Assembly: GCF_004359215.1 (NCBI RefSeq)
Contig: NW_027152180.1
Span: 138,312 to 202,311 of the forward strand
Reading direction: 5' to 3'
Source of the DNA: Bremia lactucae
Lineage: Eukaryota > Oomycota > Peronosporomycetes > Peronosporales > Peronosporaceae
Length of the DNA stretch: 64,000 bases
Positions within the stretch are counted from its first letter, which is position 1. Each line of letters begins with the position of its first letter. The notes beneath the pieces were generated by a model. It was not told where the DNA came from and ran no database searches. It saw only the letters and a program-made list of their open reading frames with translations. Shown piece after piece: positions 1 to 58,740 of this stretch. Position numbers and translations under genes: made by a program.

Positions 1-1434
1 CGTTTTACGTCTGGTTTTTGGCGACATGTGTTCGAGCTGCTAGGTAGCAAGCTCCACATGTCGACCGCAGATCATCCCCAGACCGATGGCCAAACAGAAC
101 GTGCCAATCGGGTCGTGGCGGATGTCTTACGCACTATAGCAACTCCCAAAGAGTGGAGCAAGCAATTGCCCTTTGTGGAGTTCGCTATAAATAACAGTGT
201 CCACGCCAGTACGGGTGAGACACCGTTTTATATTAACGGACTGCGCCATCCTCGGACGCCAGTCTCGTTTGTGCGCAGCCCGAGTCTTAGTGGGGGAGGG
301 CCCCTCACTATGCTCGGTGCGAAAGAGGGACATAGTTTCGTCAATATGACGATGACCCATGAGGGTATCATCTCAAAGACAGAAACTTGCCCTAGTGACC
401 CTGCCAGTTTAGCAGTGGTCAATAAAACTACGCCTTATGACCGACCTCTTGGCGGTATCATAGGCGAGTTTGATGCTAAAAGCGTGAGCGAGGCTCAACG
501 CTTTGTGGATGAGCGATTAGCCATCACACGTAAAGTCCGTGACGCAATGGCAAGCGCACAGGACAAGCAAAAAGAATATGCGGACCGAAATGGTCGCAAA
601 AACAATGAACGCTTTAGAGTGGGTGAAAAAGTACTATTAAGTACTGCTACCCTACCTAAAAATGCAATTTCTGTACTACCTGGAGGTACTACGAAGTTGT
701 TGCCGCGTTTCATTGGGCCCTTTACGGTGGTTGAAGAGGTTGGAGACCTAAATTATAGGCTCACCCTTCCCCCGTATATGAAGACGCACCCCGTATTTTA
801 CGTGGGTCGTCTGAAACGGTATGTAGACCCAAATGAGGTCACATACCCCTATCTGGTTAAGGAAACCGATGGTGACGCCGACTGTGAGTCGAGCGTCGTT
901 CGGGTGAGGGGGACGGTGAAGACGAAAAGCTATCGGACCGATGCCTCCCACCACGAACAGGACTTGGAGAGCGAGAGACATCACGCGAGTTTCGCGGATC
1001 CCTCAGCATCATCCTTTCAAAGATGTCCAAGCGAGTATTCAGGCGTTCATAACCCTGACGATCTTTCGCTCGGACATCAATGAGATCCGAGGTCAGTCGC
1101 GAGACTTGACCCTCGAGATCCGCAATACGTCGTTCAGCAGCGGTTAACGTCTGTGACTGAACGGATGAAAGTAAGGCAGCCGCGAGTAGTTGGGCGAGAT
1201 CGCCACTCCTATCGGGCGCCGCCTGCACTAATGGATGCGGGTGGAAATCAACGCTTCCTTGTTGGAAGGTTGCTTGCCCACCGCTCCGTCAGGCAAGGGT
1301 ATCAGATCCTCGTCCAATGGCAAGGTTACCCGAAGAGTATTGACCGTTGGGAACCGATCGATACCCTACGTATTGATGTGCCCGGCTTGGTGGCTGCCTA
1401 TGAAAAGGAGCACCAGATGAGGCCTCTTCGCTAG
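1..1434 (+). pseudogene. Pol 3' end: integrase C-terminal half and chromodomain, one in-frame stop
   Basis: The reading frame is open from base 1. It holds the end of the DDE integrase core (HPQTDGQTERANR, with the catalytic Glu in QTE; the second Asp would be just upstream), a GPY/F-type domain (RFIGPFTVVEEVGDLNYRL, then HPVFYVGRLKRY), a long Ser/Asp-rich linker and a chromodomain from about 1240 (FLVGRLL, QILVQWQGYPKSIDRWEP). One TGA at 1081-1083 separates the linker from the chromodomain in the same frame, so the product would be truncated without readthrough. The integrase inserts element cDNA; chromodomains in this clade are known to bias insertion towards marked chromatin. The linker lies opposite an antisense coiled-coil ORF. 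Confidence 0.85.
857..1228 (-). CDS. Antisense coiled-coil ORF (ORF-b) of family A element
   Basis: A 123-codon frame lies on the strand opposite pol, exactly over the integrase-chromodomain linker. The first part is a good heptad-type coiled coil (ERRIADLEGQVSRLTSDLID and on through RLDIFERM). The rest is SR/SP-rich and basic (SRSPSPVRGGRHRS, then RRSTHSRRHHR). No ATG is present: the frame starts at a GTG and stays open upstream to about 1288, so the N-terminus may lie further upstream across a lesion. Its codons pair with sense codons in the same register as in families B and D (antisense third position opposite sense second). A chance shadow ORF is the alternative; position and composition matching the other families argue against that. 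Function unknown. Confidence 0.5.
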   Translation of the reverse strand: MQAAPDRSGDLAQLLAAALLSSVQSQTLTAAERRIADLEGQVSRLTSDLIDVRAKDRQGYERLNTRLDIFERMMLRDPRNSRDVSRSPSPVRGGRHRSDSFSSSPSPSPERRSTHSRRHHRFP

Positions 1435-1673
1435 ACTAGCAGAAGTAGCGTTAAGAGAAGAAACAGGGGGTACAGTACCGCCCATGATTTCTTTCACACG
1501 CAAGTGGGCGAAATTAATTCACTGTGACCGCTGTTTCATCGCATCGGAATGCGGATGATGCGGCGCAGGAATTCCGCCTCGTATTAAGGCGTTTCATTTG
1601 AACGCAACACGACCGGGACCGGATAAATACGCCCAAGCGATTTTCCCTGAGCCCTCCATAATTTAAAGACGCC

Positions 1674-2368
1674 CTAATAGTTATGTGCGTCTACAAGAAC
1701 GCGCTCTAGGAGCAACGCTCTTGGCCCGTTTAAACGAGGCCATTTAGATGGAGGAAGCATCTTTGGTATGCCACCCGTCACATAGCCACGTTCAAAACGA
1801 CTGGCTTGTGACACCGACCGAGCACGTTCACGTGTCGTCGGCGGAGCTTCAGGCTCCGAATCGTCTATGTCAGAACCATTATGGATTATGGTCTGAGCAT
1901 AAGGCGTTGTAATTATACCCAACGGAGAAGCGGCTGCGCCTTTATGGGCAGCGCTCTCATTACCTGCCGCTGCGCTATCCAGCGCAGACGACGAGACAGT
2001 ATCCATAAATGCTGCTGTCTCCATGTTGTGAGCCATGAGAGAAGTTTGGATGGGCAATAATGCGCCATCATCCTTCCTCATGAGCTCGTTGTCTGCATCA
2101 CTAGTATGAGGTGACGGCAACGGTGTCGACTCATTGTAGTCGACAATGAGCGACGGATCAGCATCTCACTGTTAAAGTGGGATGGATCCTTTAGCCCTGT
2201 TAACGCGACAGCAGCAGTAGCTGTCGGCGTTTCGACTAAGGCATTGGAAGCAGCCGGCGAGTTAACGCGGCCCGTGCGCTTAGTGTGAGGTTGAGTGGGC
2301 GTCTTCGCAAACGACCCACCAACGTGGCCCCTTTTAGATGGCACCTTTGGCGCCGTGTATGGAAACAC
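1674..2368 (-). pseudogene. Antisense ORF-a of family A element, frameshifted
   Basis: Two overlapping frames (2368-2078 and 2120-1674) form one protein once aligned with the copy at 40446-41140. That copy has one extra G where this one has lost a base, near 2172. The protein is Ala/Ser/Thr-rich and low complexity (SNALVETPTATAAVALTGLK, SSALDSAAAGNESAAHKG) with a PPTTRERARS stretch near the C-terminus. It lies between the chromodomain and the 3' LTR on the strand opposite pol. Position and composition resemble the first antisense ORF of family B. It is not a gag: this element's gag would lie upstream of pol on the other strand. No known domain recognised. Confidence 0.55.
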
Positions 2369-11847: not shown

Positions 11848-12881
11848 TTGATCAACAATCACTTCAGAGACTATTATTTTCCGATAGAGAGTACTATTAA
11901 GTCTCTCTGCGAAAGGAAGCACTTCATGGTCTGTAAAGACATTCCAAATGATTCTTTGTGGATCGCAGAACCATGCGTTGCACCTACAGGGCGACAAATC
12001 TCACGGCTGTATGAGTACGTGCAGCTGCTAAAAATCAAAAGCAATAGATGGCTAGTTGTCTGCTGCGAGCGACAAACAATCTCCGCCTTCGGTTGCAGGG
12101 GAAGTGTGAGCCGGACACCCCATCCGACTCAATACCATCAGGAATGGTTACTGAATTACTTAGGGTCATACCCGGGTAAATGCGAATCATGTATAATTAT
12201 TCGCAAAGATGTTCTGTCCGCCCGACCCAAATGATGAGGAGTCGTGTTATGATGACAATGCTGGTGAGTTAATTCAGATCACCAGGATGAAGTGGTAATA
12301 ACGATTACGACAAAAAGATATTAGTACGCCTACTAACATCAGTCAAGAGGAGAGAGACCGCAGTTTGTTGCATATTGCTCCATACAAAAACCTTGGTTGC
12401 CCACTAATTGCAATTTAAGTCGATAAACGAATCAGGATGCAATTAGTGAGCAACCAAATATCGTTTTACGAATTCGTTTTACGACTCATCAAGACTTCAC
12501 AGCCCTGGTGAGGACGAAATGAGTTCTTCATCGATGGCTTTTGCCGACATCGATAATACAGTGGTAAGGTTTCAAAAATTTGAATCCCTCCATTCAAGCC
12601 TGAAATGCTTTTGTAAGGATGTGCAAAGCGTCAGCCGCGAGGCCCGAATAGACCAACTGACCACGGTGCGTGACCAGTTCAAATATAGATCGGTCGTTGA
12701 TGCACGCTTTGACATGTATCCTTTTATAAAAGAGGCAGATGTACAATGCCGACGAACCCCGTCCAGCACTTGTGGTCAGGTCCGGCGGCATGCACGCATC
12801 AAGTCCAGACTGACCGACCCCGTAAAGCGGCTTCCATTTTTCTCTAAATTTATTTTCAGATTTGAATACAAGCCCGGTTAG
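11848..12881 (+). pseudogene. Antisense ORF-a region of a decayed family C element
   Basis: The plus strand, opposite to the element's pol direction, holds two frames (11848-12234 and 12519-12881). Residues in the second (VSREARIDQLTTVRDQF, then DARFDMYPFIKEA) align with the conserved block of family C at 18300-18420 and family B at 30985-31110 (GREAWLQRLNAIRDKFEKR; LSREAGLPC). The sequence near 12330 also matches the region before 18050 (a GAGGAGAGAGACCGCAG-like run), so it is a real but degraded copy. The last dozen codons belong to the plus-strand pol fragment that starts at about 12840. Confidence 0.5.
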
Positions 12882-17971: not shown

Positions 17972-17980
17972 TGTGTTTCT

Positions 17981-18552
17981 ATGGATCGCTTTAAGGGCCG
18001 AGTTTACGTTAACGATAACATGAGCCAACAGGAGAGGGAGCGCAGTACGTTGCAGTTTGCTCCTGAAAAGAGGCCTTGGTTACCCTCTAAGGGTAACCTA
18101 ACTCGTTGGTCCGGTATGACCAACGATCGATATCATATTCCGCTGTTTAACTCATTCAGGCTTCATAAGCCTGGTGAGGATGAGACAAAATTCCGTATCG
18201 ATGCCTTTTTCCGGCACGGTGGTACTCTTCTAAACGGGCAAAAGATGTCAAACCTTTGTTCCAAGCTTGGACAGCCTTTGTACAGAGTGTACAAAACATA
18301 GGTCGTGAGGTCTGGCTTGACAAGCTAAATGCATTCGGTGAACAGTTCGAGAAACGGATTGTAGTCGGTGCACGCTATAAGATGTACCGTTTGTCTAGAG
18401 AGGCGGGGATTCCTTGCCTCTCGTTGGGGGGCTCAAGCCCATTTGTTTTAAGGGTGCGGGTCATGCCCCTAAGGAAACATATTCCCTTAAAGACCCTCAT
18501 TGGAGGCCGCTCATTTTTTTACGAGATGCGTCAAAAGATTAAAAACGTATAA
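17981..18552 (+). pseudogene. Antisense ORF-a, conserved block (family C), one frameshift
   Basis: Two overlapping frames (17981-18301 and 18256-18552) form one protein. Conserved parts shared with family B (30697-31157): PEKRPWLPSKG against SEKKPWFLPEQ; RIDAFFRH against YRDAFFKH; IGREVWLDKLNAFGEQFEKR against IGREAWLQRLNAIRDKFEKR; YRLSREAGIPCL against HRLSREAGLPCL. In a 42-codon block I count about 12 silent codon differences. The shared protein, on the strand opposite pol in two differently diverged families, is the clearest sign that ORF-a encodes something. Predicted mostly helical; no known fold recognised. Confidence 0.6.
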
Positions 18553-18780
18553 TCCTTGTACGAGCGCAGAAAGCGCTCGTTCTCCGACGGACCTTCTGTC
18601 GAGGAGGATTTGTCTCGTGGTACTGCAAGACGAGACCGACATCAGTTGAAAACGAGTTTCCCAACTATGTTGCGAGGGTGGATACCGTCGCCAACGAACG
18701 AGACTCGTTCGAATTTTCTTTTCTTTACTGTGGTTCGAGAAGCTTTCAACAAGGTAACGCTTTTCACCACTCGAATCCAT
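18511..18780 (-). pseudogene. Chromodomain remnant of family C pol
   Basis: The minus strand reads EKRYLVESFSNHSKE, then TSLVRWRRYPPSQHSWETR, a chromodomain at the end of pol. It aligns with the family B chromodomain at 31307-31498. The aromatic cage is partly changed. It overlaps the region between antisense ORF-a and ORF-b. Confidence 0.7.
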
Positions 18781-18915
18781 CGATGATGTGGAGGGGGAGG
18801 AAACATCGCGTTCACCTCGTTTGACGGACTCGAATCAACATCATGTTTTGGGTCACACCCTTTATATGCGAGGGAGGACATTGATCACGAACGGTTTTGT
18901 CGCCGCGAGTTAGCG

Positions 18916-19191
18916 ATGACGGTTGATAATGTTTTTCGTGACCAGTTAAGAAATTGGGCGCAGGTTGCGAATGATCAACTAGCGAACAAAAGAACACATT
19001 TACCTTTCAAAACGAGCTGTGAGAGCTCGTCAGAAGATCTCTTCCTTGAAGAAAAAGTGGATTGTCTGGTCCAAGAGAATCAGACTCCATTCCGAAACAT
19101 TAAGTCTTTGGCTCGGAACCATCCGGCTTTGGCGGATGCCCTTGACCGCTCCGGCGTAATCCTAAGCAAATCGGAAGAAGCCTCGTACTGA
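18916..19191 (+). CDS. Antisense ORF-b (family C), divergent
   Basis: A 91-codon frame opposite the integrase-chromodomain linker. Its end aligns with family B ORF-b: after the stop both continue with a near-identical stretch (TGATGGTACGGxCG, then AACGTAGGATGCGT). Residues around DCLVQENQTPFRNIK are helical and charged, but the coiled-coil pattern is weaker and the basic RKKPR tail is lost. Probably a decayed homologue. Confidence 0.4.
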   Translation: MTVDNVFRDQLRNWAQVANDQLANKRTHLPFKTSCESSSEDLFLEEKVDCLVQENQTPFRNIKSLARNHPALADALDRSGVILSKSEEASY

Positions 19192-20569: not shown

Positions 20570-20866
20570 TTATTGTTGCAACATCAGTACGCAGATTTGC
20601 TTGACTTTGTCACTACGGAGATCACGCAAAAACCGTTTCGGTTCTAGCGTTGCCAATTGAGTTATCTTCGAAGTTAACTTCGGAGGCGCTATTAGATCAA
20701 GCGTATAAGCACCTACACTTGATCCATTGTTCACTATAGCATTTATTGTTTTAGTTTCCTCTTTGGAACTTATTTGCAAAAGTACCTGGGAACCTTTGAC
20801 CGCAGGTTTCCGGGGACTTATTCCCACAGAAATTATTTGGAGATTATTCTCTTCTGGGACTCGCAA
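20570..20866 (-). pseudogene. Protease-RT linker region remnant (family C)
   Basis: A 98-codon piece matching the start of the RT-bearing frames of family B at 52060 and 34516 (NDGSRVGAYTLDLYAPPKLT against NNGSSVGAYTLDLIAPPKLT; EPKRFLRDLHS against EPKRFLRDLRS). RT and RNase H between here and the integrase are deleted. The other end is cut by the Copia insertion. Confidence 0.7.
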
Positions 20867-21084
20867 GGAGTTTCGAAACGTCTTTTATTGTAATGGTCAC
20901 GGAGCGGTGGTTACGGCGAAAGATGAAACGATCCAAGGTCGAGAGGTTTCAAGAAGTATGAGATGCAAGTAACGCACGATGGACAGGTATTCTGACAAGA
21001 AGAGAGTTAAGGCTTACATGCATAATATATTCACTTTGTCTTTTGCAAAATAGCACCCATGGAAATTCAATCTGACGTTCAACA
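20855..21084 (+). repeat. Copia 5' LTR, 5'-truncated
   Basis: It is the same as the right LTR from TGGGACTCGCAAGG to GACGTTCAACA apart from a few changes. It lacks the opening TGTTGGAAGGCGATGCTGCA, so the promoter side may be damaged. Confidence 0.8.
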
Positions 21085-24000
21085 CCAAAAGGTTATGAGC
21101 CCAACGCCAAATGATCAAGAAGGTCATGTCCAAGCGCCAGCCATCACCCATATCGACGACGACAGAGCCAGTACGGCTTCTGGCGCGGACGAGGGCATGG
21201 CCAGGCTGCTGGAACTGATAACGGACTTGAAAGGAGACATGGGAGCTCGCCTTAATAGGCTTGAGGCCCGCCAAGTCGAGGATGATCAAGGTTCAGTCGT
21301 GTCAGCCGGTAGCAGCACCTTCCGTACGTATGCGGAAGCGCGCACCGGATTCGGCCGGAACATGACGATGGCCTCGCTCGAAGACGAAGTCATGCCTGGA
21401 CCAGCGCGGCAACACGCAGCAGGACCAGGGCAACAAAGGCTGGCTGGAGGGAGAGCCGGTGTAGGTCCAGTTCCTCAGGTGCCACGGGAATCGGCTTTCA
21501 GACCGGTTCCTACACTAGCGTATTTTGCTCCGCAAAGGCCCCTGCAGATCAGGGACCTAAAACTTGCGATCGAAAACTTCGATGGCAAGGAGGTTTATCC
21601 AGGACTAGGGTCGGGATTCGCACCTTGGGGGAAGCGATTTCTACGCCAAGTTCGTATCGCCGAGGAACTTAGTGGGTGCATCTGGACCGAGGACATCAAA
21701 ATGGATGTACTTGGTCGGTATTTGACAGGCAAGGCTGGTCAACATTTTTACAGTCAAGTGGATACATGGTACACCGAGAATCCACAGATATGGTACTCGA
21801 TGGACCGTATGAACCTCAAGTTTGGACCTAGGATCTCAAGGTCACAAGCTTTTAAACTGTTCACGTGTAAGAAAAAGGAGTCGATGTCGTGGAATGATCA
21901 TATGCTCTATCTAATGGCGGTCAGTGACGCAGTCGGAGGCGCACAAGACCAAGTGCTTGAAAATATAGCCAAGTACGCATGCTTCGCAACCGACTTTCAA
22001 GGTGTGCTTCTCGCAAGGTACAATCCTCATCGAGAGGATTACTTACGGCAAGCTGAAGAGTTGGTGAATTTTGCCCAGTTAAATGACCCGGGTATTCGCA
22101 TTGGGTCCAAGTCAACTGTGGCCGTCGTCAAAGGCACTGAAGGAGGTCGGCGCAGAAACGATAAAGAGAGAAAAGTCAAGAAGACTGGAGCGTGTTTCAA
22201 GTGTGGAAAAGAAGGCCACTACAAACGTGAATGTACTAGTGAGCCTAATAACAACTTTACGTTAGCTGTCTCCGACGGCATTGACTCTACCAGCCAATGG
22301 ATACTGGACAGCGTGTCAAGTCGACATTTGGTGACAAAGGCGTCACAGGTAATCGACGCAGTAAAATGCGACGAAGAGTGTTTACTTCCTAATGGGGACA
22401 GCTTGCGTATGCAGCTCAAGGGTACGGCCGAGTTCGTGGTCAGTGTTGACGGCGAAATTCGCCGAGTCAAACTACTCGATGCGTACTACGCAGAAAAGCT
22501 ACCGTTTAACATCATATCCTATGGCAAGATCGAGGAGCGAGGGTTTGAACTTCGTTACGATGGACATAAGCGATCAGTGGTTCGGCGGCGTGATGGTTGC
22601 AAGATTTTTGATGTTGACAAAGACGACAGCAACGTGTTGCTAGTGAATGTTGTTGACACAATTGAGCACAAGGATTTTTTTACGGTTGCAGCAATTGCTG
22701 AGGCTGTCAACACGCCGATTTCGGACCTTCAGATGGGGAGTCTACTCGATTTTCACTTAAGATTTGGACACCTCGCCTATGATACAATCGAATTGATGGC
22801 GAGTGATCCATCGAGTGGAATAAGGCTAACAGACACCGAGCGACCCACTTGCTTAACGTGTGCGCAAGGTAAGCAGCGCCGCAACAAGCAGTGGAAGAAA
22901 GACACGGGTGAGAATGCTCCTATCGATAGGGTGGGTGGTGTGATATGCAGCGATATCAAAGGTCCAATAACGCCGGTCGACAGGTCGGAAACCGATATTT
23001 AATTAATTTTATCGACCACAAGAGTAACTACTGCCGGGTATTCCTCTCCAAGACGAAGGACAAGGCGACTAAGCATTTCGAAAACTTCATGGTCTACTTT
23101 GAAAAGCGATTCAACTGCAAGGTTCACTATCTCCGTACGGATGGAGGTGCCGAGTACAAAGTTGTTGACCCGTTTTGTAAGAATGTGGGTGTGCGTCGCC
23201 AGGTTTCAGAAGCTGACAACCAAGGATCCAACGGAAAAGCGGAAAGGATGCACCAGACATTGATGAACCTGGTGCGATCAATGATTTTCGGTTCGGGACT
23301 CCCGTTGAGCTTCTGGGGTGATGCTGCTGAGTACGCAGCCTACATACTCAACAGAAGCCCAACGCGGAGTAACGTGGGGCGTGCATCACCTATTGAGGTG
23401 CTTACAGGTATCAAACCCAGGCTAACTGATATTGTTATATTTGGATCGCCGTGTACCGCTATTCGGACACCAAAACACAAGGCGCTGGATGGACGTGGAG
23501 AAGCAGGATTGATACTCGGGAAGAACGACGAAGTTAAAGGTTTTCGCGTCTTATTTACTAAGGATCGTGTGGTACGCACAACACAGCATGTGCAGAATAT
23601 CAAGACGCTGAGTGAAGACGCAAATGCACAACTTCATCGTCTGACAGATGGCCAATCAGAACATGAAAGCTCATCAGCTAATTCCTCGATTTCGCTGGAT
23701 GAGAACAGATCCAGTCCTGCTGATTTGGCGACTACAAGTGCAAGTCTAAAGTCTATCGAGACTGACGAATTCTTTGATACCCAACAGACCGATGTAGATC
23801 ATCGGAAGGAGCCACGTGCCTGTACAAAGCCACAAAGGTCACGTGGTAAGCGCGGCGGGCAAGGGAGGCGGTCGAATACCAAGATAATCGCCGAAAAACC
23901 ACGCATGACAACGCGATACTGTGGTAATAAGATACCTCCACGTGAATTTGTTGGAGCAACTTACCGCGTGGATCCAAGTAATTGGAACATGGCTATGAAG

Positions 24001-25595
24001 AGTGACAAGCGCGTGGAATGGGAGCGCGCTGCAAGCGCTGAAATTGACTCGCTGGAAGCAAATGATACGTGGGAGTTGGTTCCACGAACTCAGGAGATGC
24101 GACCACTCCATACCAAGTGGGTCTTCAAAACGAAGACGGATGCCGATGGTAACATCGAGCGTTACAAGGCACGCATGGTAGCGTGTGGCAACGAGCAGTC
24201 GTTCGGCAAGGACTATACCCTGACTTTTGCCGCAGTAATGGATATGACGACCGGGAAAGTCATTTTGGCACTGGCTCAGATATGGGGAGTTCCAGCAAGA
24301 CACGGAGACGTACCTAATGCGTACGTGAAGGCGTCTACGGAGCCGGACCTCAATATCTATTTGTACGTCCCGCAGGGAATGCAAATTAGCAAAGAAGAAA
24401 CTCAGCGACTTGGTGTTGAAACCGCAGGTCAAGTGGTTCTTCAGCTCAAAAGAAGTCTATATGGCTAAAGCAAGCCGGGAGACTATGGTCTCAGCTTCTA
24501 CACTCAGAGCTACTTCGAGTTGGATTTGTGCAGTGTGTGAGCGACTCGTGCCTTTACTTTAAAGTAAATGGTGACGATAGAACGGTCGTGGGGGTATATG
24601 TCGACGATTTGCTGATTACAGGGACGTCTGAGGGGCGAGTGGAAGAAGTATTTGATCTCCTTGTAACGCTGCAGATAAAGAATCTGGGTGCTGTCAGCAA
24701 ATTTCTGGGCATGAGAATCAGTTACTCGGATGAGTGTGGATACGAAATTGATCAAGAAGCTACTATCATCGAGATGCTGATAAAGTTTGGATTACAAGAT
24801 GCGCACTCGGTGATGACGCCAATTGGACTTGATCACGACAATAATACGCACGAGGTGGATACACTACTACCTAAAGAGGGCGTGGTTGGATCTGCATCGG
24901 TGCAGAATTTCCAGTCGATTGTTGGATCGCTTTTATGGCTGGCTCGCTGTACGCGTCCGGATGTAGCATATGCCGTACATCGAGCAACTCGGCGAGCTCA
25001 TGCGCCGACGACGAGCGATTGGCAGCTAGCCAAACAAATTGCTAGATACCTAAAGGGTACTAAAGATGTCAAGCTTCGCTTAGGACGACGAAAAGGTACA
25101 GAAAGATCGATTGTACAACTCACTAGCACAAGTGATGCAGACTTCGCCGGTGATAAGAGCGATAGGAAGTCAGTGAGCGGTGCTATATTTCGTGTGGACG
25201 TTATGATGGTGGGTTGGACCTGTCGGAAGCAGACAACCGTCTCACTGTCAACAATGGAAGCTGAATTCACGTCTGCATCGCATGCTGGACAAGAACTACC
25301 AGGCCTACGTGAGCTTTTATCCGAGTTGGATTTTCTCGTGAAGTTACCCATGACAATGGAAATGGATAACCAAGCGGCCATCCGGCAGATGGAAAATAAA
25401 GAGAGCTCGGCACGCGCCAAGCATATTGATATCAAGCTCAAGTTTATTAAGGACTACGCTAAGAAGGGAATTATAAAACCCAGCTTTGTGTCAACTGAGG
25501 CGATGACAGCAGACATACTGACGAAGGCATTTAGCGCCACTCGCCTGCGAGCACTAATGGAGATGTGCTCATTGTACCGCAGCAAGATGGACTAA
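21059..25595 (+). pseudogene. Copia Gag-Pol polyprotein, two frameshifts, altered protease site
   Basis: Domains in order: coiled-coil N-terminus and gag; CCHC knuckle CFKCGKEGHYKREC (about 22193); protease WILDSVSSRHLV (about 22300), where the usual DSG reads DSV; pre-integrase finger (HLRFGHLAY, CLTCAQGK); integrase with Asp (CSDIKGPI), Asp (LRTDGGAEY) and Glu (GKAERMHQT); RT with YVDDLLITG; RNase H (TSDADFAGDKSD, STMEAEF) and the C-terminal ADILTKAF. A one-base loss near 22985 interrupts the integrase and another near 24466 interrupts RT at YG/LKQAG. Gag starts at the ATG at 21059, which would lie inside the LTR, or at the in-frame ATG at 21095. Not autonomous as it stands. Confidence 0.9.
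21085..21102 (+). other. Copia primer-binding site, half-tRNA type
   Basis: Directly after the LTR comes CCAAAAGGTTATGAGCCC. GGTTATGAGCCC is complementary to the anticodon stem-loop of an initiator tRNA-Met (GGGCUCAUAACC), not to a tRNA 3' end. Drosophila copia is known to prime from such an internal half-tRNA. Confidence 0.65.
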
Positions 25596-25639
25596 AACAA
25601 GGCGTGTAATCAGAAACACACGGCACCGTGAGGAAGGAG

Positions 25640-25900
25640 TGTTGGAAGGCGATGCTGCAGCGGAGTTTCTGGGACTCGCAAGGAGTTTCGAAACGTCTTC
25701 TATTGTAATGGTCACGGAGCGGTGGTTACGGCGAAAGATGAAACGATCCAAGGTCGAGAGGTTTCAAGAAGTATGAGGTGCAAGTAACGCACGATGGACA
25801 GGTAATTCTGACAAGAAGAGAGTTAAGGCTTACATGCATAATATATTCACTTTGTCTTTTGCAAAATAGCACCCATGGAAATTCAATCTGACGTTCAACA
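25640..25900 (+). repeat. Copia 3' LTR (261 bp)
   Basis: It starts TGTTGGAAGG after the purine-rich GAGGAAGGAG, the usual Copia polypurine tract and LTR junction, and ends TTCAACA. TGTTG and CAACA form perfect inverted ends. Confidence 0.85.
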
Positions 25901-29407: not shown

Positions 29408-29664
29408 CGTCTAAGTGGTATATTGATGGTCAACTGGAGTAACTTTTGATTATGTTAAACACAGAAATTGGTTTTTGCGATTTGTAAAATAAATATTATC
29501 ACCTGGAAGAGAAATAAAATAGAATAACTAATGTTTATCTTTGTGGATAATATTATCGATATTACCATACATGGTTTATAGCGTCCAGTATTTGATTTAA
29601 TTTTTAAATAATCCCCACCCCAGCTGCTAGACGCGCGAATGGACAGTGAGCAATGAGCCACTAG
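29408..29664. promoter_or_regulatory. Upstream region of PRMT4 gene, ending at an LTR insertion
   Basis: About 257 AT-rich bases separate the PRMT4 ATG from the family B LTR. The LTR therefore sits close to the gene's promoter. No sequence motif is certain. Confidence 0.35.
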
Positions 29665-30104
29665 TGTAACGGGGCACTACCGACTTGTACTGCTTCAGTA
29701 CAAGTCCACTTCGCACTGCCTCAGTGCGAGTGGTGCCTCACGTCACTTCACGTACACTAGTACGTGCAGAGGAAGTCGACTCTTTAAATCACTTGCTTTA
29801 AAGAGGGTTAATTAAAAACTGTATTAATACAATTCAGTTCTTCTTGTCTATCTACTTATTCCTAACTTTATTATTTACTAATACAAAACATGGAATAAAA
29901 TCTTATCTGTATTTCTCTTTGCGCGCGTCCAGCGCTGACTGGACCGCGGAGAAAGTAGATATAATGGTCTATATCTACCAATGGATAAGCTTTTAGAATA
30001 TTACCATGTAAAGTAATATTCTCCAAATATTATCTACCTTTTAGATAATATATTAATTAACAACTTTTAAGTGTCAATTTCATGTAACGATACACCCCGT
30101 TACA
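29665..30104 (-). repeat. 3' LTR, family B copy 1 (440 bp)
   Basis: Starts TGTAACGGGG and ends CCCCGTTACA: 10-bp perfect inverted termini, much longer than the usual TG/CA. On the internal side it abuts the purine tract. Confidence 0.9.
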
Positions 30105-30118: not shown

Positions 30119-30221
30119 AACGACAATCACTCTGACTGTCATTGGGTAGAGTGGTCACTATAAGACCACTTTATTAATAATGATGTTGATTGGTCAGAAC
30201 CATCATTTTTAATTCTATCGC

Positions 30222-30668
30222 ATGGTTAACAAGTCCATGCGGTATGCGAAGAGTGCGGCGCCTTCGGCTGCGGTTCATGCATCCGTGGGCGACGCATTAT
30301 TGTCTCTTGCGGCAGACGTTCCGTCTGCCGTAGTGTCAACTTCTCCCGCAAATTTTTTTTTTTTAAATGTTGCGGGTGCACGTATTGATATGCCACGTGA
30401 ATGCGACCCCTCTTTGGAAGTCGACTACAAATGCGAGTCGGACGAAATGGCCGACTCGGGGAGATCAGAACAGTCGCCTGATCATCGTCAGGCGCTAACT
30501 ATGAGCCTTCGAATGAGGGGGCTCATTCAAGTAGACGTGCTGATAGCCTTTGCTACAGCATGTTCAGTTCCAACGATAAGGATGATTCCTCATCGCCAGC
30601 ACCGTCTCTCGTGCCGTCACCAGCACATATTTCTGTGTGTAGTGATACGATGGCGTAAGCCATCGTAA
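30222..30668 (+). CDS. Antisense ORF-a, first part (family B)
   Basis: A 148-codon frame from an ATG about 120 bp inside the 3' LTR, on the strand opposite gag-pol. The N-terminal half is Ala/Ser-rich, followed by DPSLEVDYKCES, which matches DPSLIVDYNES in family A (about 40630) and, more loosely, EIMVDYESQ in family D (about 58570). The end looks out of frame from about codon 95 (loss of acidic composition), so it probably continued into the next frame originally. Unknown function; likely disordered. Confidence 0.5.
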   Translation: MVNKSMRYAKSAAPSAAVHASVGDALLSLAADVPSAVVSTSPANFFFLNVAGARIDMPRECDPSLEVDYKCESDEMADSGRSEQSPDHRQALTMSLRMRGLIQVDVLIAFATACSVPTIRMIPHRQHRLSCRHQHIFLCVVIRWRKPS

Positions 30669-30696
30669 TAAAAGCTCTTGCTGTACCCCTGCTTCA

Positions 30697-31157
30697 GTGG
30701 GTACCGCTCAGGGGATCGTAGACACTAAAATGTCTCGTCTTGCGTCTGAGAAGAAGCCGTGGTTTTTGCCCGAGCAGCTAATTAATAGCTTGGCTGGAGA
30801 GACTACTCCTCATAATAAATATTTTTTATTTATTGCGACAAAGCTACATGGCCTTGATCCCAGCGCGAAGAACTTTAGCGCGAAAGAAGATTTTTATCGC
30901 GATGCTTTTTTCAAGCATCGGTATAGTGGCAACAATAGCGAGATCAAGTCTCGCTTATGCAAGCCCGGAGGGCGTTAATTCGCAATGTCAAAGACATTGG
31001 ACGCGAAGCCTGGCTTCAAAGACTTAATGCAATTCGCGATAAGTTTGAGAAACGAACTCCAACCGGTGCAAAGTATGAATTGCATCGGTTGTCACGTGAG
31101 GCTGGGCTTCCATGCCTCACGTGGGGTGATCGGGTGATCCCTGTCCGTGTTGTGTAG
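30697..31157 (+). pseudogene. Antisense ORF-a, conserved block (family B), one frameshift
   Basis: Frames 30697-30978 and 30957-31157 together carry SEKKPWFLPEQLINSLAG, YRDAFFKH, IGREAWLQRLNAIRDKFEKR, AKYELHRLSREAGLPCL. The family C counterpart is at 17981-18552, a third copy at 12519-12850 and a short fourth at 43968-44090. The block is helical and charged with no metal-binding pattern. It lies between chromodomain and 3' LTR on the strand opposite pol, so its transcript would have to start in or near the 3' LTR running inwards. Confidence 0.6.
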
Positions 31158-31306
31158 ACAACTCGAAGAGGGTAAAAGGGGATGTCTATTCCCATTCTTC
31201 GCCCTGGGGAAGGGCTCGCATCTCTATTGAGATGCGCGATGCGATTGACGTTTTGCAATCGATTTACACGCGTCAGGGGCGCGTGTTTTCCGATGGACCT
31301 TCCGAT

Positions 31307-31498
31307 CTATCGGATGGGTCTCGTCATACTGACGGACGAGGCCCTCAACGACAATTTGCAGCTGGGAACGAGGTTCCAGCTGTCATGTGAAGGTGGATAA
31401 CCGTGCCAGCGAACAAGATAACTCATTCGCTCCCCCTTCACATCACGGTAATTTTGAACAGGTTCCACAAGGAAACGTCGACCACCGTGGGAATCCAC
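31307..31498 (-). CDS. Chromodomain at the end of family B pol
   Basis: Reads RRFLVEPVQNYRDVKGERMS, then YLVRWHGYPPSHDSWNLVP, a chromodomain closing the pol frame. The aromatic residues usual for methyl-lysine binding are partly kept (Tyr, Trp). It overlaps the antisense frame on the other strand. Confidence 0.8.
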   Translation of the reverse strand: MDSHGGRRFLVEPVQNYRDVKGERMSYLVRWHGYPPSHDSWNLVPSCKLSLRASSVSMTRPIR

Positions 31499-31926
31499 TA
31501 ATGGTTGTGGCGGAGGAGGAAAAATTAGATCCGAACCGTATGTCGGATCTAATGTCGAAGATCGACAAACTCGATCGCTTCCTCCATGATTTGGAGGAAG
31601 AACTGGAACGCGAGCGCGGTAAGCGTCGCTCGTTGGACCAGACCGTGCAGGCTCATCATATCAAACGATGGGAAGACCGTTCAAAGAGTGCGTACTCCAT
31701 GTTGGAGTACGAACGGAATTATCACGCTCTTCGTGATGAGTTATCGTCAGCTCATCGCGGTTTCGAGGATCTTCGGACCCGACATGAGAATCTCCAGATT
31801 CAGCATGAGAATCTGGTTCGTGACCACATGAATATCTTAGGGATTCTTGAAAAGGGTGGTCAGATCCGTCCTCGGAAGAAACCGCGTACTAGTGGTACGG
31901 GCGGAGCCGACCAACGTAAAACGTAG
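31387..31926 (+). CDS. Antisense coiled-coil ORF-b (family B, copy 1)
   Basis: An intact 179-codon frame opposite the integrase-chromodomain linker. The core from about residue 50 to 155 is a long charged coiled coil (KIDKLDRFLHDLEEELERER, HENLQIQHENLVRDH) and the end is basic (RPRKKPRTSG), possibly a nuclear or nucleic-acid binding tail. The aligned copy at 48842-49267 shows 31 of 58 differences at its third codon position. The sense pol frame over this stretch has a TGA (minus strand at 31663-31661) while this frame is open. It is the best-preserved reading frame in the element and likely a real protein. It may dimerise; function unknown. Confidence 0.7.
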   Translation: MKVDNRASEQDNSFAPPSHHGNFEQVPQGNVDHRGNPLMVVAEEEKLDPNRMSDLMSKIDKLDRFLHDLEEELERERGKRRSLDQTVQAHHIKRWEDRSKSAYSMLEYERNYHALRDELSSAHRGFEDLRTRHENLQIQHENLVRDHMNILGILEKGGQIRPRKKPRTSGTGGADQRKT

Positions 31927-31989
31927 GATGCGTTCGCATCCTACGTGGCAATTCTATTGTGAACACATTGCCTCTGCGATGCAGTACAC

Positions 31990-32646
31990 GGAAAGTCCCG
32001 ATGAACTTGGGTAGTAGCTTACTGCTACCCACATTAGTGACTACTCGCTTAGGCAAATTTACCGTAGAGAGTAGTAGTAGGTCATTAACGTTAAATGAAA
32101 GAACGTTTGCTCTTCATGTTTGTCTGCGTTCCGTTTCTGACGGTCCACTGCGTTAGAATCCTGTACGAAACGGATTACTGATTCTCGAGTCAGCAGAAAT
32201 TCCTTTGCTGACTCATTTGTTTTGTCTTTTTCAGTGCGCTTATCCGAAGACGAAGTCCATAGATATGGACTGCCATCACTCTGCCGGAAGCGGTAGAGGT
32301 TGGAGAGGTGCACGGGATGAAGGGCTAGGCTTCACCCGTTGACATACGCCGCAAGCACGAATGTACTTGCGCTCGAACTGATACTGGCGGGGCCAGCAGA
32401 AGTCGCGACTTACTGTGGGATAAGATTCCTCACGTCCATATGCCCACTTGTTGGTGCATCGTGACACTTATGCATGATGCGCAAGCGCAAATCATTGTGA
32501 GTTGGGACGACGACACGTGGAGTGTCGCCGGCAGCGGCTGTGTAATACAATATGCCGTTGCGTGTTGTGTATCGATCGGATGACGATTGATATGAAGCCG
32601 GTAAATCTTTATAAGATTTATCGGATGGATTCATCAGATGATCCAT
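31990..32646 (-). pseudogene. Integrase with catalytic core deleted (family B, copy 1)
   Basis: The zinc-binding region is present (LRIMHKCHDAPTSGH; FCWPRQYQFERKYIRACGVC then QRVKP). The frame then reaches the first catalytic Asp (SISMDFVFG) and jumps to KRTEKDKTNESAKEFLLTRE, which in the other copy lies beyond the core. The second Asp and Glu are gone, so the copy cannot encode active integrase. Confidence 0.8.
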
Positions 32647-36553: not shown

Positions 36554-36555
36554 GG

Positions 36556-36995
36556 TGTAACGGAGCACTACTGACTTGTACTGTTTCAATAAAAGTCCAC
36601 TTCGCACTGCCTCGGTGCGAGTGGTGCCTCACGTCAGTTCACGCACCTAGTACGTGCAAAGGAAGACTCTCTTTATAGCACTTGCTTAAAAGAGGTTGAT
36701 AAAACCGTATTTAATATAATTAAGTTCTTCTGCTTCTGTCTATTAAGTACTAAATTAATTTTAAACTAATACAAAACATGTAATGAAGTCTTATCTGTCT
36801 TTTTCTTTTGCGTGCGTCCAGCGCTGACTGGACCGCGGAGAAAGTAGATATAATGGTGTATATCTACCAATAGATAAGCTTTTAGGAAATTACCACGTAA
36901 AGATATATTCTCCAAATATTCTCTACCTTTTAGATAATATACAATTAACAACCTTAAAGTGTTAATTTTCTTGTAACGATACACCCCGTTACACG
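36556..36995 (-). repeat. 5' LTR, family B copy 1 (440 bp)
   Basis: TGTAACGGAG to CCCCGTTACA, the same length as the left LTR. It differs from that LTR at scattered sites, so the insertion is not very young. Confidence 0.88.
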
Positions 36996-40313: not shown

Positions 40314-40445
40314 CTATCCACTCCCTTAAAGAACGAAGTTACATTTTAAACTTCGATAAAGTGGAAGGAAGAACTATGCTGCTTGACGCGCCGCTAAGTC
40401 TCTGATTCACTCTAGCGACCTCTGTTTTCATACACGGCGCCAAAG

Positions 40446-41410
40446 GTGCCACCTACATGGGCAACGTTGGAGGGTCGTCTGCGAAGACGCCCACTAACTC
40501 TTGCATTTAGCGCGCGCGCCGCGTTAACACGCCCTGCAGCGTCCAATGCCTTAGCTGAAACGCCGACCGCTACTGCTGCTGTCGCGTTAACGGGGCTTAA
40601 GGATTCATCCCACTTAATCAGTGAGGATGTTGATCCGTCGCTCATTGTCGACTACAATGAGTCGAGACCGTTGCCGTCACCTCAAAGTAATGATGCGGAC
40701 AAGGATCTCACGAGGAAGGATGATGGCACATTATTGCCCATCCAAACTTCTATCATTGCTCATAACATGGAGACAGCAACACTTACGAATGCTGTCTCGT
40801 CGTCTGCGCTGGATAGCGCAGCGACGGTTATTGCGAGCGCTGCCCATAAAGGCGCAGCCGCTTCTCCGTTGGGTAAAACCACACCGTCTTTTGCTCAGAC
40901 CATTATCCATAATGGTTCTGACATAGAGGATTCTGAGCGTAACGCTCCGCCGACGACGCGTGAATGTGCTTAGTCGCTGTCACAAGCCAGCCGTATTAAA
41001 CGTGGCTGTGTGACGGGTGGCATATCACTTATGCTCCCTCTCTCTGAATGGCCTCGTGTAAACGGGACAATAGCGTCGCTCAAAAAACGCGCTTTTCTAA
41101 ATGCTCAAAACTATTATGGTGTCATTAAATTATGGAAGACCCGGTCGTGTTGCGTTTAAATGAAACGCCCGACCAATACGAGGCGAAATTCTTGCGCCGC
41201 ATTCATCCGCATTCCGATGCGATGATACAGCGGTCGCAGCGAATTAATATCGCCCGCTTGCGTGTGAAAGAAATCATGGGCGGTACTGTACCCCCTGTTT
41301 CTTCTCACTACGCTACTTCTGCTAGTCCATTTGAGACTAGCGAAGAGGCCTCAGCTGGTGCTCCTTTTCATAGGCAGTCACCAAGTAAATTCACCGTCTC
41401 CCTCATCTGA
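40446..41410 (+). pseudogene. Antisense ORF-a, family A copy 2
   Basis: The frame 40446-40973 keeps the part broken in copy 1: EDVDPSLIVDYNESRPLPSP, then SSALDSAATVIASAAHKGAA and IIHNGSDIEDSE. A TAG then interrupts where copy 1 reads RARSVSQASR. The second frame, 41132-41410, holds a charged helical C-terminal part (NETPDQYEAKFLRRIHPHSD, INIARLRVKEIMGG). Its end is cut by the deletion that removed the chromodomain. Strand and place match copy 1. Confidence 0.55.
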
Positions 41411-41471
41411 TCGCCGCTAGACTCACAGTCGGCGTCACCATCGTCTTCTTCGACGAATGGGGGTATGAGGC

Positions 41472-41891: not shown

Positions 41892-41941
41892 TGCTAAACT
41901 GGCAGGGTCACTAGGGAAAGTTCATGTCTTTAAGCTGATAG

Positions 41942-42426: not shown

Positions 42427-42428
42427 CC

Positions 42429-42444
42429 TGGTAGCACTCGTAGT
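42429..42444 (+). other. Primer-binding site, family D copy 1
   Basis: TGGTAGCACTCGTAGT two bases after the LTR. The first ten bases are identical to the family B site, so both use a tRNA ending GUGCUACCA. Confidence 0.7.
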
Positions 42445-42486
42445 CAACCTACGCCTGAGTCTTTACAAGACTTATTTTTTACGACA

Positions 42487-47741: not shown

Positions 47742-48089
47742 TTACGTGGTAAAAGCGATTTCGGCGAAAGACGCCCGAACCGCCTCAAAAGAGCTCCCAA
47801 CCCGAGCAAGGACCTCACGAAGAAGTTGCACCTCGTGTCGTTGAGCATCAAATGCTTCCGCCGAAATTTCGGCCCCCTCCCGCACCGCTTGATGCGCGGG
47901 GAAACCTTCAGTTTCATGTGGAGAAACTTTTAAAGCGACGTCGTCGTGAGGGTCAATACTAGTATCTGGTGAAGTGGCTAGGGTAACCCTCTTCCAAAAA
48001 CTCTTGGGAGTTCGAGGTACCTCTTCGGCAAGATTGCCCGTACAACGTTGACATTTTTGAGCTCCAAGCTGAGGGTCAACTCGCGTCAA
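47742..48089 (-). CDS. Antisense ORF-b (family D, copy 1), coiled coil
   Basis: A 115-codon frame opposite the integrase linker and chromodomain (sense chromodomain about 47891-48060: FHVEKLLKRRRREGQY, YLVKWLG). The last 50 residues are a coiled-coil-like amphipathic helix (EISAEAFDAQRHEVQLLREV, then SSFEAVRASFAEI). The second copy at 57430-57580 encodes a related antisense helix (EISVKMFGALKHEVRLLREG). It uses the same codon register against sense as families A and B. Confidence 0.5.
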   Translation of the reverse strand: MTRVDPQLGAQKCQRCTGNLAEEVPRTPKSFWKRVTLATSPDTSIDPHDDVALKVSPHETEGFPAHQAVREGAEISAEAFDAQRHEVQLLREVLARVGSSFEAVRASFAEIAFTT

Positions 48090-48275
48090 ACGTCGCTTCC
48101 CACTACTAAACGTGGGATTAGGTGGATCTAAAGCCTCAGTGCGGCTTCGATCCTTGGTTGTACGGTCAACCGTAGCACTGAAATATCGGCTAGCCTTACT
48201 TCGTTTTGTGGCATAAATGCTGAACGTAACTGGCCTTTGGCCTAAAGCTTAGCGAAGTCGAAGCGAAGCTTCACC

Positions 48276-48467
48276 TTAATCCGCAGACTCTCTGATATTC
48301 CAGATATTACGGAGTTTGCGGGCCCGGTGAACCCAGTTCTCAAATGAGACTTCGTTTTCACTCCTTGTTTCGTTTGGAAACAAAACGATCAGAATCTTTC
48401 TCATGCAGGTCACCGAAGCCCCACAAGCTTGATCACGTAAACGCGTCAGATACTGGCTTCGCGTCAT
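48276..48467 (-). CDS. Antisense ORF-a segment (family D, copy 1)
   Basis: A 63-codon frame between chromodomain and element end on the strand opposite pol: TRSQYLTRLRDQACGASVTC, MRKILIVLF, ENWVHRARKL. The second copy at about 58200-57990 encodes a similar series (TRRQNLTLLRGQARGALVTL, MRIIPIVLS, KNWVHR) with stops, so the protein was shared by the family. It is a piece of a longer broken ORF. Confidence 0.45.
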   Translation of the reverse strand: MTRSQYLTRLRDQACGASVTCMRKILIVLFPNETRSENEVSFENWVHRARKLRNIWNIRESAD

Positions 48468-48577
48468 TACCTTCGGCGTAAGGTAATGCTCATGAAGAGC
48501 GTCGCGGGCAGCGATCTCCTCCGGCGTCCTCGCCGGGTCACCAGTGATCCAGGGGAAGGGCTCGCATCTCTATCGAG

Positions 48578-49267
48578 ATGCGCGATGAGATTGACGTTTT
48601 GCCATCGATTTACAGGCGCCAGAGGCGCGTGTTTTCTGATAGACCTTATGATCCATTGGATGGGTCTCGTCATACTGACGGACGAGGCTCTCAACGTCAA
48701 CAACCAGCTGGGAACGAGGCTCCCTGCTGTCATGTGAAGGTTGTAAACCGCACCAGCGAACAAGATAACTTGTTCGCTACCCCTTCACATCACGGAGTAT
48801 ACGTTCCACAAGGAAACGTTGACAGCCTTGGAAATTCACCAATGGTTGTGGCGGAGGAGTGAAAATTAAATCCGACCCATGTGTCGGATCTAGTGTCGAT
48901 GGTCGACAAACTCGATCGCTTCCTCCATGATTTGGAGGAGGGACTTGACCACGAGCGCGGTAAGCGTCGCTCGTTGGAGCAGACGGTGCAGGCTCACCAT
49001 ATCGAGCGGTTGGAAGACCGTTCGAAGAGTGCGTACTCCTTGTTGGAGTACGAGCGGAAGTATCATGCTGTCCGCGATGAGCTGTCGTCAGCTCATCGTA
49101 GCTTCGAGGATCTTCGAAACCGGCCTGAGAAACTTCAGGTTCAACATGAAAATCTGGTTCGCGATCACAATAATCTTTTGGGTATTCTTGTAAAGAGTGG
49201 TCAAATCCGTCCTCGGAAGAAGCCGCGTACTGATGGTACGGCCGGAGCCGACCAACGTAAAACGTAG
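48578..49267 (+). pseudogene. Antisense coiled-coil ORF-b (family B, copy 2), one stop
   Basis: One frame from the ATG at 48578 to 49267, interrupted only by a TGA at 48860. N-terminal part MRDEIDVLPSIYRRQRRVFS, C-terminal coiled coil (MVDKLDRFLHDLEEGLDHER, ERLEDRSKSAYSLLEYERKY) and basic end (RPRKKPRTDG). Because the N-terminal part is in frame here, ORF-b was probably about 229 codons long in the ancestor; copy 1 has an indel near 31375 that shortens it. Substitutions against copy 1 fall mostly on third codon positions. Confidence 0.65.
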
Positions 49268-57429: not shown

Positions 57430-58740
57430 GCTGGCTCTTTAAACGAGGTTGTTGACGTTCCAATGTTGAAAGACGGGTTTGGGCCGCGTCAAAAGATCTT
57501 TCAGTCAGGGTAAAGCCCTCACGAAGAAGTCGCACCTCGTGCTTTAAAGCACCAAACATTTTTACAGAGATTTCGACCCCCCCCCGCGTTGCTCGATGAG
57601 CGAGGTAACGTTCATTTTCACGTGGAGAACCTCCTCAAGCGACGTCGTCGCAGGGACCAATACCACTATCTGGGTGGAGTGGCTTGAAAACCCCTCTTCG
57701 GAAAACTATTGGAAGTTTGAGTTACCCCTTCGACAAGATTGCTCGTACACCATTGACATTTTTGAGCGCTGCTCCCAGGGTCAACCTGCGCCAGACGACG
57801 CTTCCCACCAATAGAGATGGGAACGTATGGTGCTATAGCCGCAGTGCGACTTAAAATTAATCTATGGTTGCGCTGGAGTGCTGGCTAGATCTATCCTCGT
57901 TTTCAGACAGATAGTCCGGACGTAACTGGCCTTTGGCCTTAAGCTTGCGAAACCAAAACGAAGCTTCCGTTCGAAACGAACATCTTCACACCCGCAGACT
58001 CTCTTATAGACCAGATGTTGCGGAGGCGGTGGGCCGATGGACCCAGTTTTTGAACGAAGCATCGCTTTCGTTATTTTATTCGTTTAGAGACAGGACGATC
58101 GGAATTATCCTCATTAAGGTCACCAAAGCCCCACGGGCCTGACCACGCAAAAGCGTCAAATTCTGACGTCGCGTTATTATCTTAGGCTAAAGGTATCGCT
58201 CATGAAGAGCGTCGCAAGCCTTGCGTCAGGAGGTCCAGATGGTAAAGCTGCGACCCGTAACCTCTTGGAGGCGCTATTCCACACTAAGTGGAGTGAATCG
58301 ATATTCACTGTGAGCTTTTGCTTTCGCAATGTCTACAGGCTGCCGACGAGCTTGTTTCCTCTCTGACGATTGCTTGCTCTTGCTTTCCATTGAGCAGGAC
58401 CGTAATTATGTTGGGCTCAGGGTCCGGTGTCTTGCGCAATGCAGCTGAAACATCCGCAACACCCCGTTATTGGAACGGATATCGGGCCCGACGAAACTTA
58501 TCTACGCGACGAGGCGTGTAGGAGCCGCGCTCCTTTTCCTCATCCCCCGATAAAGTCTGACTTTCATAGTCTACCATTATCTCATCGTTAGGGAAGCAGT
58601 CGAGGGTCTGGGACTCACGCTTAGTTGTCATCAGACAAAGGAATGCAGAACACAACCGACCAGTTAGCTGTTTATATTCCAACCTTAAAGAGGAAATGAA
58701 GCGAATGTTGTCACTCGATCTCAACAGTCTGATGGGGAAA
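57430..58740 (-). pseudogene. Antisense ORF-b and ORF-a remnants, family D copy 2
   Basis: On the strand opposite pol: ORF-b helix at about 57580-57430 (EISVKMFGALKHEVRLLREG), ORF-a pieces at 58200-57990 (LTLLRGQARGALVTL, KNWVHR) and an acidic piece at 58740-58467 (FPNDEIMVDYESQTLSGDEE). The last shares VDYxxS-type residues with DPSLEVDYKCES of family B and DPSLIVDYNES of family A. Several stops. Confidence 0.45.
57590..57790 (+). pseudogene. Chromodomain remnant, family D copy 2
   Basis: DERGNVHFHVENLLKRRRR, then DQYHYLGGVA and a frameshift before the SENYWKFELPLRQDCSYTID stretch. It aligns with copy 1 at 47891-48060. Confidence 0.7.

What the first reader, a model, noticed from the sequence alone, without database searches (positions are those of the whole stretch)
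30222..31926. Gypsy chromovirus families carry a conserved protein-coding module on the strand opposite gag-pol
In families A, B, C and D the interval from the integrase C-terminus to the 3' LTR holds ORFs on the opposite strand (A: 857-1228 and 1674-2368, 40446-41410; B: 30222-31926, 48578-49267; C: 11848-12850, 17630-19191; D: 48467-47742, 58740-57430). Purine tracts and primer sites fix the element direction, so these are truly antisense. Two modules recur in the same order, ORF-b over the integrase linker and ORF-a next to the LTR. Antisense ORFs are known in some plant Gypsy elements such as Grande; I know of no description in oomycete chromoviruses. An ambisense element could use the product to regulate its own or its host's expression, but that is speculation.
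Basis: partly seen in the sequence, partly recalled or inferred. Interest (0 to 1): 0.92.

Follow-up and report, generated by a model that had tools for sequence, protein, structure and literature searches.

The report
Antisense gene inside oomycete retrotransposons
A common jumping gene of downy mildews carries, on the strand opposite its own replication genes, a conserved extra protein gene that partly overlaps them; such reverse-strand genes were known in some plant elements and in leukaemia viruses, and the job of this one is unknown.

Summary
The antisense coding is real. The 193 database relatives (120 listed) include proteins from Peronospora matthiolae (clusters of 1335 and 524 members), P. 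effusa and Hyaloperonospora arabidopsidis. The best conserved part, a central helical domain with an H-x9-C-x6-C-x2-C motif, lies beyond pol; there B and C copies differ most at antisense third codon positions (0.44/0.41/0.62), with pN below pS in 722 of 722 pairs. Further in, constraint changes strand: opposite the chromodomain the sense frame is conserved, opposite the SH3-chromodomain linker the antisense coiled coil. Family C carries the same protein. Family D carries a different antisense protein of similar layout in the same slot, also found in H. arabidopsidis. Family A's evidence is weak. No Pfam or PDB match fits. Best reading: an element-encoded, probably nuclear accessory protein, resembling plant 'aORF-3R' genes and HTLV HBZ in layout without detected relationship. 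Expression and function are untested. New variant of a known kind.

The parts
29664..30104 (-). 3' LTR of element B1 (sense strand is -)
   Evidence: blastn against 36555-36993, 86.7% over 445 columns
36555..36993 (-). 5' LTR of element B1
30222..31926 (+). antisense gene of B1 (one ~560-residue protein, frames broken in this copy), ATG 118 bases inside the 3' LTR, stop 31924-31926
   Evidence: profile of A1 matches 30237-31899 colinearly in six pieces; ATG at this place in 23 of 37 aligned sequences
   Evidence: pLDDT under 50 for nearly all of residues 1-165 of P0001
30700..31220 (+). central helical domain (ends approximate) with H-x9-C-x6-C-x2-C motif: HRLSREAGLPCLTWG at 31083-31127, CCVDN at 31148-31162; beyond the pol frame
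31220..31515 (+). antisense stretch opposite and around the chromodomain (ends approximate); here the sense frame is the conserved one
   Evidence: profile columns 318-400: antisense position 2 (= sense position 3) most variable, 0.31/0.46/0.29
31567..31899 (+).
31892..32095 (-). integrase SH3 domain of pol
   Evidence: SH3_Tf2-1 by Pfam in B2 and in copies; TFYVGRLRPYH at 31892-31924
31376..31480 (-). chromodomain of pol (core)
   Evidence: PF00385 in copies L064 (E 5e-14) and L046 (E 9e-10)
48554..49243 (+). C-terminal part of the same antisense protein in element B2
18008..19173 (+). same antisense protein in family C fragment, six pieces
12308..12752 (+). weak remnants of the same protein in a rearranged C-type fragment
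   Evidence: E 0.005 and 1.2e-5
47742..48467 (-). D-type antisense protein (different family), two stops inside in this copy
57430..58740 (-). D-type antisense protein, second and more diverged copy
   Evidence: 280 profile columns matched
40416..41410 (+). A-type antisense frame
   Evidence: weak evidence of selection
857..2368 (-). A-type antisense frames, second copy

Best explanation
These chromodomain Gypsy elements carry a second, oppositely oriented gene. It starts just inside the 3' LTR, runs inward, and ends opposite the integrase SH3 domain, overlapping about 0.6-0.7 kb of pol tail to tail. SHOWN: it encodes one conserved protein (predicted disordered acidic N-terminus, confidently predicted helical central domain with a conserved His/Cys motif, disordered stretch, long coiled coil, basic C-terminal end); its central domain and, within family B, its coiled coil are under purifying selection in the antisense frame, while opposite the chromodomain the sense frame is the constrained one. 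INFERRED: it is made from an antisense transcript starting in or near the 3' LTR, dimerises by the coiled coil, enters the nucleus and binds nucleic acid or chromatin to regulate the element (or help its cDNA or integrase), as proposed for plant antisense aORFs and reported for HTLV HBZ. INFERRED: the 140-residue pol linker between SH3 and chromodomain is largely what the antisense coiled-coil gene reads as on the other strand.
For: One protein: copies hold stop-free antisense stretches L050 262-1554 (N-terminus and centre, 431 aa) and L047 1501-2781 (centre and coiled coil, 427 aa); long relatives P0001 559 aa, P0004 574, P0014 529, P0073 593. Spread: 193 proteins at E<=1e-3, 120 listed, with P. 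matthiolae clusters of 1335 and 524 members. Selection: B x C central domain, 722 pairs, differences 0.42/0.36/0.61 at positions 1/2/3; pN below pS in 722 of 722, median pN/pS 0.48, dN/dS median 0.29 in the 158 pairs with pS under 0.74, the rest being saturated; bootstrap over columns, position 3 minus 2: 0.14 to 0.28. Within B at 31600-31899, variants shared by >=3 of 37 sequences 10/5/34 (p 4e-7), private ones 43/41/51 (p 0.54); the same in the 9 sequences not collected by protein similarity (shared by >=2: 1/2/15, p 4e-5). Opposite the chromodomain it reverses: 0.31/0.46/0.29. Structure: pLDDT block means 89-96 at residues 171-280 and 88-98 at 431-540. W243, G254, R272, G276, H282, E287, W295 invariant and C292, C299, C302 nearly so in 48 sequences. 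C-termini: 8 of 12 fetched relatives end in KT or RT, one more has QRKT and runs on, three lack it; B1 ends DQRKT, read opposite the SH3 stretch TFYVGRLRPYH. Sense linker of 140 residues between SH3 (45-108) and Chromo (249-299) in L064.
Against: No transcript, protein, localisation or binding data were available. No fold or Pfam match points to nucleic-acid binding. Among B copies the N-terminal and first middle parts show no position bias (shared >=3: 85/85/89 and 61/63/66), in a part of the alignment that is saturated or mixes subfamilies; the next two middle segments give only 15/10/25 (p 0.03) and 14/14/24 (p 0.15). B x C support is weak at profile columns 130-219, and in the coiled coil position 1 is highest overall (0.59/0.41/0.54), with columns 400-459 not favouring the antisense frame; median dN/dS there 0.55 (140 pairs) and 1.16 at columns 310-410 (242 pairs). 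The opposite-strand location in other species is inferred from C-terminal residues, not from their DNA. A copy of the multiplied D unit (window, identical in L004) has stops in its antisense frame, so such units spread without an intact copy in cis.
Confidence: 0.6

Rival explanations
1. Passenger frames: the antisense frames are open only because of pol's codon make-up on the other strand; no antisense product matters.
For: Holds locally: opposite the chromodomain the sense frame is the constrained one, and long antisense frames can arise opposite biased codons (general knowledge).
Against: The best conserved part lies beyond pol, with pN below pS in 722 of 722 B x C pairs; in the linker overlap shared variants sit at antisense third = sense second positions, 10/5/34, also in copies found by DNA alone; relatives share invariant residues.
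Confidence: 0.03
2. RNA-level role: antisense transcription matters (double-stranded RNA or promoter interference), the protein does not.
For: Antisense transcripts of retroelements can act as RNA (review PMC7264820, passages).
Against: Codon-position bias, absence of stops and invariant residues need translation. A double RNA and protein role is not excluded.
Confidence: 0.05
3. Captured host gene: a cellular gene was transduced into the elements and keeps a host-like function.
For: Retroelements do transduce genes (PMC7264820 and PMC11963269); relatives are entered as ordinary proteins of P. matthiolae and P. effusa.
Against: Relatives come in very large groups within P. matthiolae; 8 of 12 fetched relatives have the C-terminus expected opposite SH3; no significant Pfam match in 48 members; no name outside oomycetes among the listed hits. 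Ancient capture cannot be excluded.
Confidence: 0.1
4. Particle or integration cofactor: the protein works in the virus-like particle or pre-integration complex (binding cDNA, integrase or gag) rather than regulating transcription.
For: The layout (disordered, helical His/Cys domain, coiled coil) suits a scaffold equally well; the overlap faces the targeting end of integrase.
Against: No direct evidence either way; the basic stretches (KKPRTD in B, QKRQRR in D) would fit nuclear entry in both readings.
Confidence: 0.22

Closest known systems
Plant antisense additional ORFs between pol and 3' LTR (aORF-3R: maize Grande gene23, rice RIRE2, Silene Retand, PvRetro13); review PMC7264820 (passages read)
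   Same: LTR elements with a gene antisense to gag-pol near the 3' LTR; conserved across copies and species; function unknown; nuclear or regulatory role proposed
   Different: Different host lineage; here the gene overlaps pol up to the SH3 domain (the word 'overlap' does not occur in the review's held text); chromodomain elements; no shared family found
Retand TRP28 (PF04195) antisense proteins, PMC11963269 (passages and Discussion read)
   Same: Antisense POL-3'LTR proteins, some with Smc-type domains, predicted DNA-binding region
   Different: PF04195 not among the Pfam families shown for 48 B/C-type or 13 D-type proteins (25 of 26 and 25 of 34 shown; those not shown matched one member each, weakly); Retand are non-chromovirus elements of flowering plants
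HTLV-1 HBZ and other antisense retroviral proteins, PMC10186651 (passages read)
   Same: Antisense gene at the 3' end; HBZ has an N-terminal activation domain and a C-terminal bZIP; here an acidic N-terminus and a C-terminal coiled coil
   Different: No bZIP family among the Pfam matches shown; the central His/Cys helical domain has no HBZ counterpart that I know of (recall); no known relation
Chronos Gypsy elements of oomycetes, PMC5348765 (passages read)
   Same: Oomycete Gypsy elements with a chromodomain; also counted in H. arabidopsidis
   Different: Chronos took up a plant-like RNase H; the paper's main text has no 'antisense' or 'opposite'

Membership tests
aORF-3R class (antisense additional ORF of LTR elements) | frame antisense to gag-pol inside an LTR element | tested here: met
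aORF-3R class (antisense additional ORF of LTR elements) | located between pol and the 3' LTR | tested here: met
   N-terminal and central parts lie there; the C-terminal part overlaps pol
aORF-3R class (antisense additional ORF of LTR elements) | conserved over many copies and across species | tested here: met
   B/C and D types in the copies examined and in other downy mildews; A type not shown across species
aORF-3R class (antisense additional ORF of LTR elements) | antisense transcription, nuclear product (as in Grande) | not testable with these tools
   no RNA or localisation data held
Retand TRP28 proteins | PF04195 domain | tested here: not met
   no significant match in 48 + 13 members; families not shown matched a single member at E of about 0.06-0.1
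HBZ-like antisense bZIP factors | bZIP domain | tested here: not met
   only weak coiled-coil and other families, none bZIP, among those shown
Chromodomain Gypsy elements | chromodomain at integrase C-terminus | tested here: met
   PF00385 in L064 and L046
Chromovirus clade | position of RT in the chromovirus clade | not tested
   no RT tree was made
Chronos | additional plant-like RNase H besides the gypsy RNase H | tested here: inconclusive
   only about 250 bases (L003) and 160 bases (window D) lie between the RNase H and H2C2 matches, short for a second RNase H there; full elements not examined

The most novel reading that the evidence does not exclude
Downy mildew chromodomain Gypsy elements are ambisense: unrelated antisense proteins (B/C type, D type, perhaps A type) occupy the same slot with a similar layout, and the antisense gene has grown into pol, so that a 140-residue integrase linker exists mainly as the back side of its coiled coil; along the overlap the two strands take turns in being the selected one. 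The product is a nuclear regulator of the element with a central domain of no recognised fold.
Probability: 0.35. Interest if true: 0.82.

Novelty: new variant of a known kind. Interest (0 to 1): 0.68.

Why it matters
Antisense accessory genes were recorded in some plant LTR elements and in HTLV-type viruses. A strongly conserved one in oomycetes suggests that ambisense coding arises repeatedly in LTR elements. It is a natural case of overlapping genes in which selection can be read strand by strand from many genomic copies, and it explains large groups of 'uncharacterized proteins' in downy mildew gene sets (clusters of 1335 and 524 members in P. matthiolae) as probable transposon products, which bears on gene counts for these crop pathogens.

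Full report
WHAT IS THERE. The window (G000 contig C93, 138312-202311, in a 116-Mb assembly of 220 contigs) is full of LTR elements, several of them nested or broken. Pfam and local tblastn place gag, protease, RT, RNase H, H2C2 and SH3 of family B on the - strand. B1 is bounded by LTRs 29664-30104 and 36555-36993, 86.7% identical over 445 columns, so it is an old insertion. The finding's region is the 3' end of B1, read on the + strand.

ONE PROTEIN, NOT TWO MODULES. The L047 protein found 193 database proteins at E<=1e-3, of which 120 were listed: a 559-residue one 93% identical over 98% of the query, many Peronospora matthiolae proteins (two 529-residue clusters with 1335 and 524 member sequences), P. 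effusa and Hyaloperonospora arabidopsidis proteins and unnamed ENA ones. A second search with alignment A1 gave 146 hits (only the 7997 candidates sharing most words were scored) and no other named genus among the 120 listed. A profile of A1 matches window 30237-31899 in order from N- to C-terminus in six pieces, plus 18008-19173 (C), 48554-49243 (B2), weak remnants at 12308-12752, and a short piece on the sense strand inside the D element (43966-44079, E 1.3e-8).

ANATOMY OF THE PROTEIN. AlphaFold on P0001 with 48 sequences: residues 1-165 disordered, confident helices within 177-287 and less certain ones to 342, 351-416 disordered, one long coiled coil 430-536 (mean pLDDT 66, pTM 0.42, so only the parts are reliable). 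In A1, W243, G254, R272, G276, H282, E287 and W295 are invariant and C292, C299, C302 nearly so: an H-x9-C-x6-C-x2-C pattern, zinc-like by inference; its last half lies where pLDDT falls to 62-83. No Pfam family fits and no solved structure is close by sequence or fold.

OVERLAP WITH POL. In copies L064 and L046 one sense frame carries SH3_Tf2-1 and Chromo; in L064 SH3 is at residues 45-108 and Chromo at 249-299 of 330, a 140-residue linker. The antisense stop of B1 (31924-31926) lies opposite the SH3 end TFYVGRLRPYH (31892-31924). Over 31375-31899 both frames lack stops in most sequences: antisense 28 of 37, pol 21 of 37, other four frames 0 of 37; in the nine sequences not collected by protein similarity, antisense 7 of 9 and pol 4 of 9. 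Of 12 relatives fetched, 8 end in KT or RT, one has QRKT and runs on, three lack it; this is what the overlap would give and suggests the same arrangement in their genomes, whose DNA was not seen.

SELECTION. Old copies decay neutrally, so variants were split. In 37 B sequences at 31600-31899, private variants are spread evenly over antisense codon positions (43/41/51, p 0.54), whereas variants shared by three or more sequences are 10/5/34 (p 4e-7). Antisense position 3 is sense position 2, so the antisense frame is the one conserved there. The nine rows found by DNA or lying in the window give the same (shared by two or more 1/2/15, p 4e-5; private 28/24/36). At 31375-31592, over the chromodomain, shared variants are 8/15/10 (p 0.31) and, at four or more sequences, 4/15/4 (p 0.005), the sense pattern. 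Across families B and C, differences at positions 1/2/3 are 0.44/0.41/0.62 in the central domain (171 columns), 0.31/0.46/0.29 opposite the chromodomain (83 columns) and 0.59/0.41/0.54 in the coiled coil (109 columns; only position 2 clearly lowest). In the central domain pN is below pS in 722 of 722 B x C pairs (median pN/pS 0.48; dN/dS 0.29 in the 158 pairs that are not saturated); medians are 0.46 for C x C (269 pairs) and 0.43 for B x B (474). Pairs share ancestry and are not independent. Results against: shared variants are flat in the N-terminal (85/85/89) and first middle segments (61/63/66), where the alignment is saturated or mixes subfamilies; B x C columns 130-219 and 400-459 are weak; median dN/dS is 0.55 in the coiled coil and 1.16 at columns 310-410, the latter as expected opposite the chromodomain.

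OTHER FAMILIES. D: a different antisense protein of ~450 residues (14 hits, among them three H. arabidopsidis entries; 13 aligned) with a similar layout: disordered acidic start, folded 124-249, disordered 255-370, coiled coil 375-431 (mean pLDDT 59, 13 sequences), and a conserved KRQRR-type basic patch. Median dN/dS in its central part is 0.37-0.52 in three comparisons, elsewhere 0.51-0.84 (profile columns 230-428). No homology to the B/C protein was found. A: long antisense frames in many of the 18 sequences examined, dN/dS 0.64-0.89, little position bias; no database search was left for it. So a common slot is well supported for B, C and D, less so for A.

HOW IT PROBABLY WORKS. The ATG lies 118 bases inside the 3' LTR; 23 of 37 aligned sequences have it, 5 are gapped, 2 masked and 7 show other codons, several of them not truly alignable there. 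By analogy with Grande and HTLV (reviews PMC7264820, PMC10186651; passages read) an antisense promoter in or next to the 3' LTR is the likely source of its mRNA; this is inference. A coiled-coil protein with a His/Cys helical domain, acidic tail and basic patch suits a nuclear nucleic-acid- or chromatin-binding accessory factor (regulatory role about 0.6, particle or integration cofactor about 0.2).

NOVELTY. [quoted passage not shown] the oomycete proteins lack the Retand TRP28 domain. Nine paper searches listed no title or abstract start describing one in oomycetes, and the oomycete retrotransposon paper PMC5348765 has no 'antisense' in its main text. Subscription papers and Repbase notes could not be searched. 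The overlap with pol and the change of constraint between strands are the features I know from no description.

Noticed in passing
window about 40416-48656: Recently multiplied chimeric unit: the A-type piece (59 matches at 100%) and the D-type piece (60) recur at nearly constant distance genome-wide; L004 is base-identical to the window over 47179-48656 and runs on into a B element. In the window copy antisense and pol frames are broken, so it probably spread with help. Outer boundaries not resolved.
   Followed up: partly
window 20852-25804: Young Copia-type element: 138-base direct repeats 99% identical, long gag and pol frames, next to C-type remnants.
   Followed up: no
window 43966-44079: Piece of the B-type antisense gene inside the D element between gag and RT, on the sense strand, an apparent template switch or insertion.
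   Followed up: partly
window 30136-30154: Palindrome GTGGTC-ACTATAA-GACCAC between the 3' LTR and the antisense ATG; another subfamily has GTGGTCAC-TATG-TGACCAC. Possible binding site or RNA hairpin; untested.
   Followed up: no
window 4021-5382 (+) and 61761-63086 (-): Two frames of 453 and 441 residues with C-terminal ricin-type lectin domains.
   Followed up: no
window 11815-14476: Rearranged fragment: H2C2 domain on + beside RT-RNase H on -.
   Followed up: partly
P0006 (H. arabidopsidis): UniRef calls this relative a 'Core-binding (CB) domain-containing protein' (a tyrosine recombinase term, from recall); not supported by Pfam here.
   Followed up: partly
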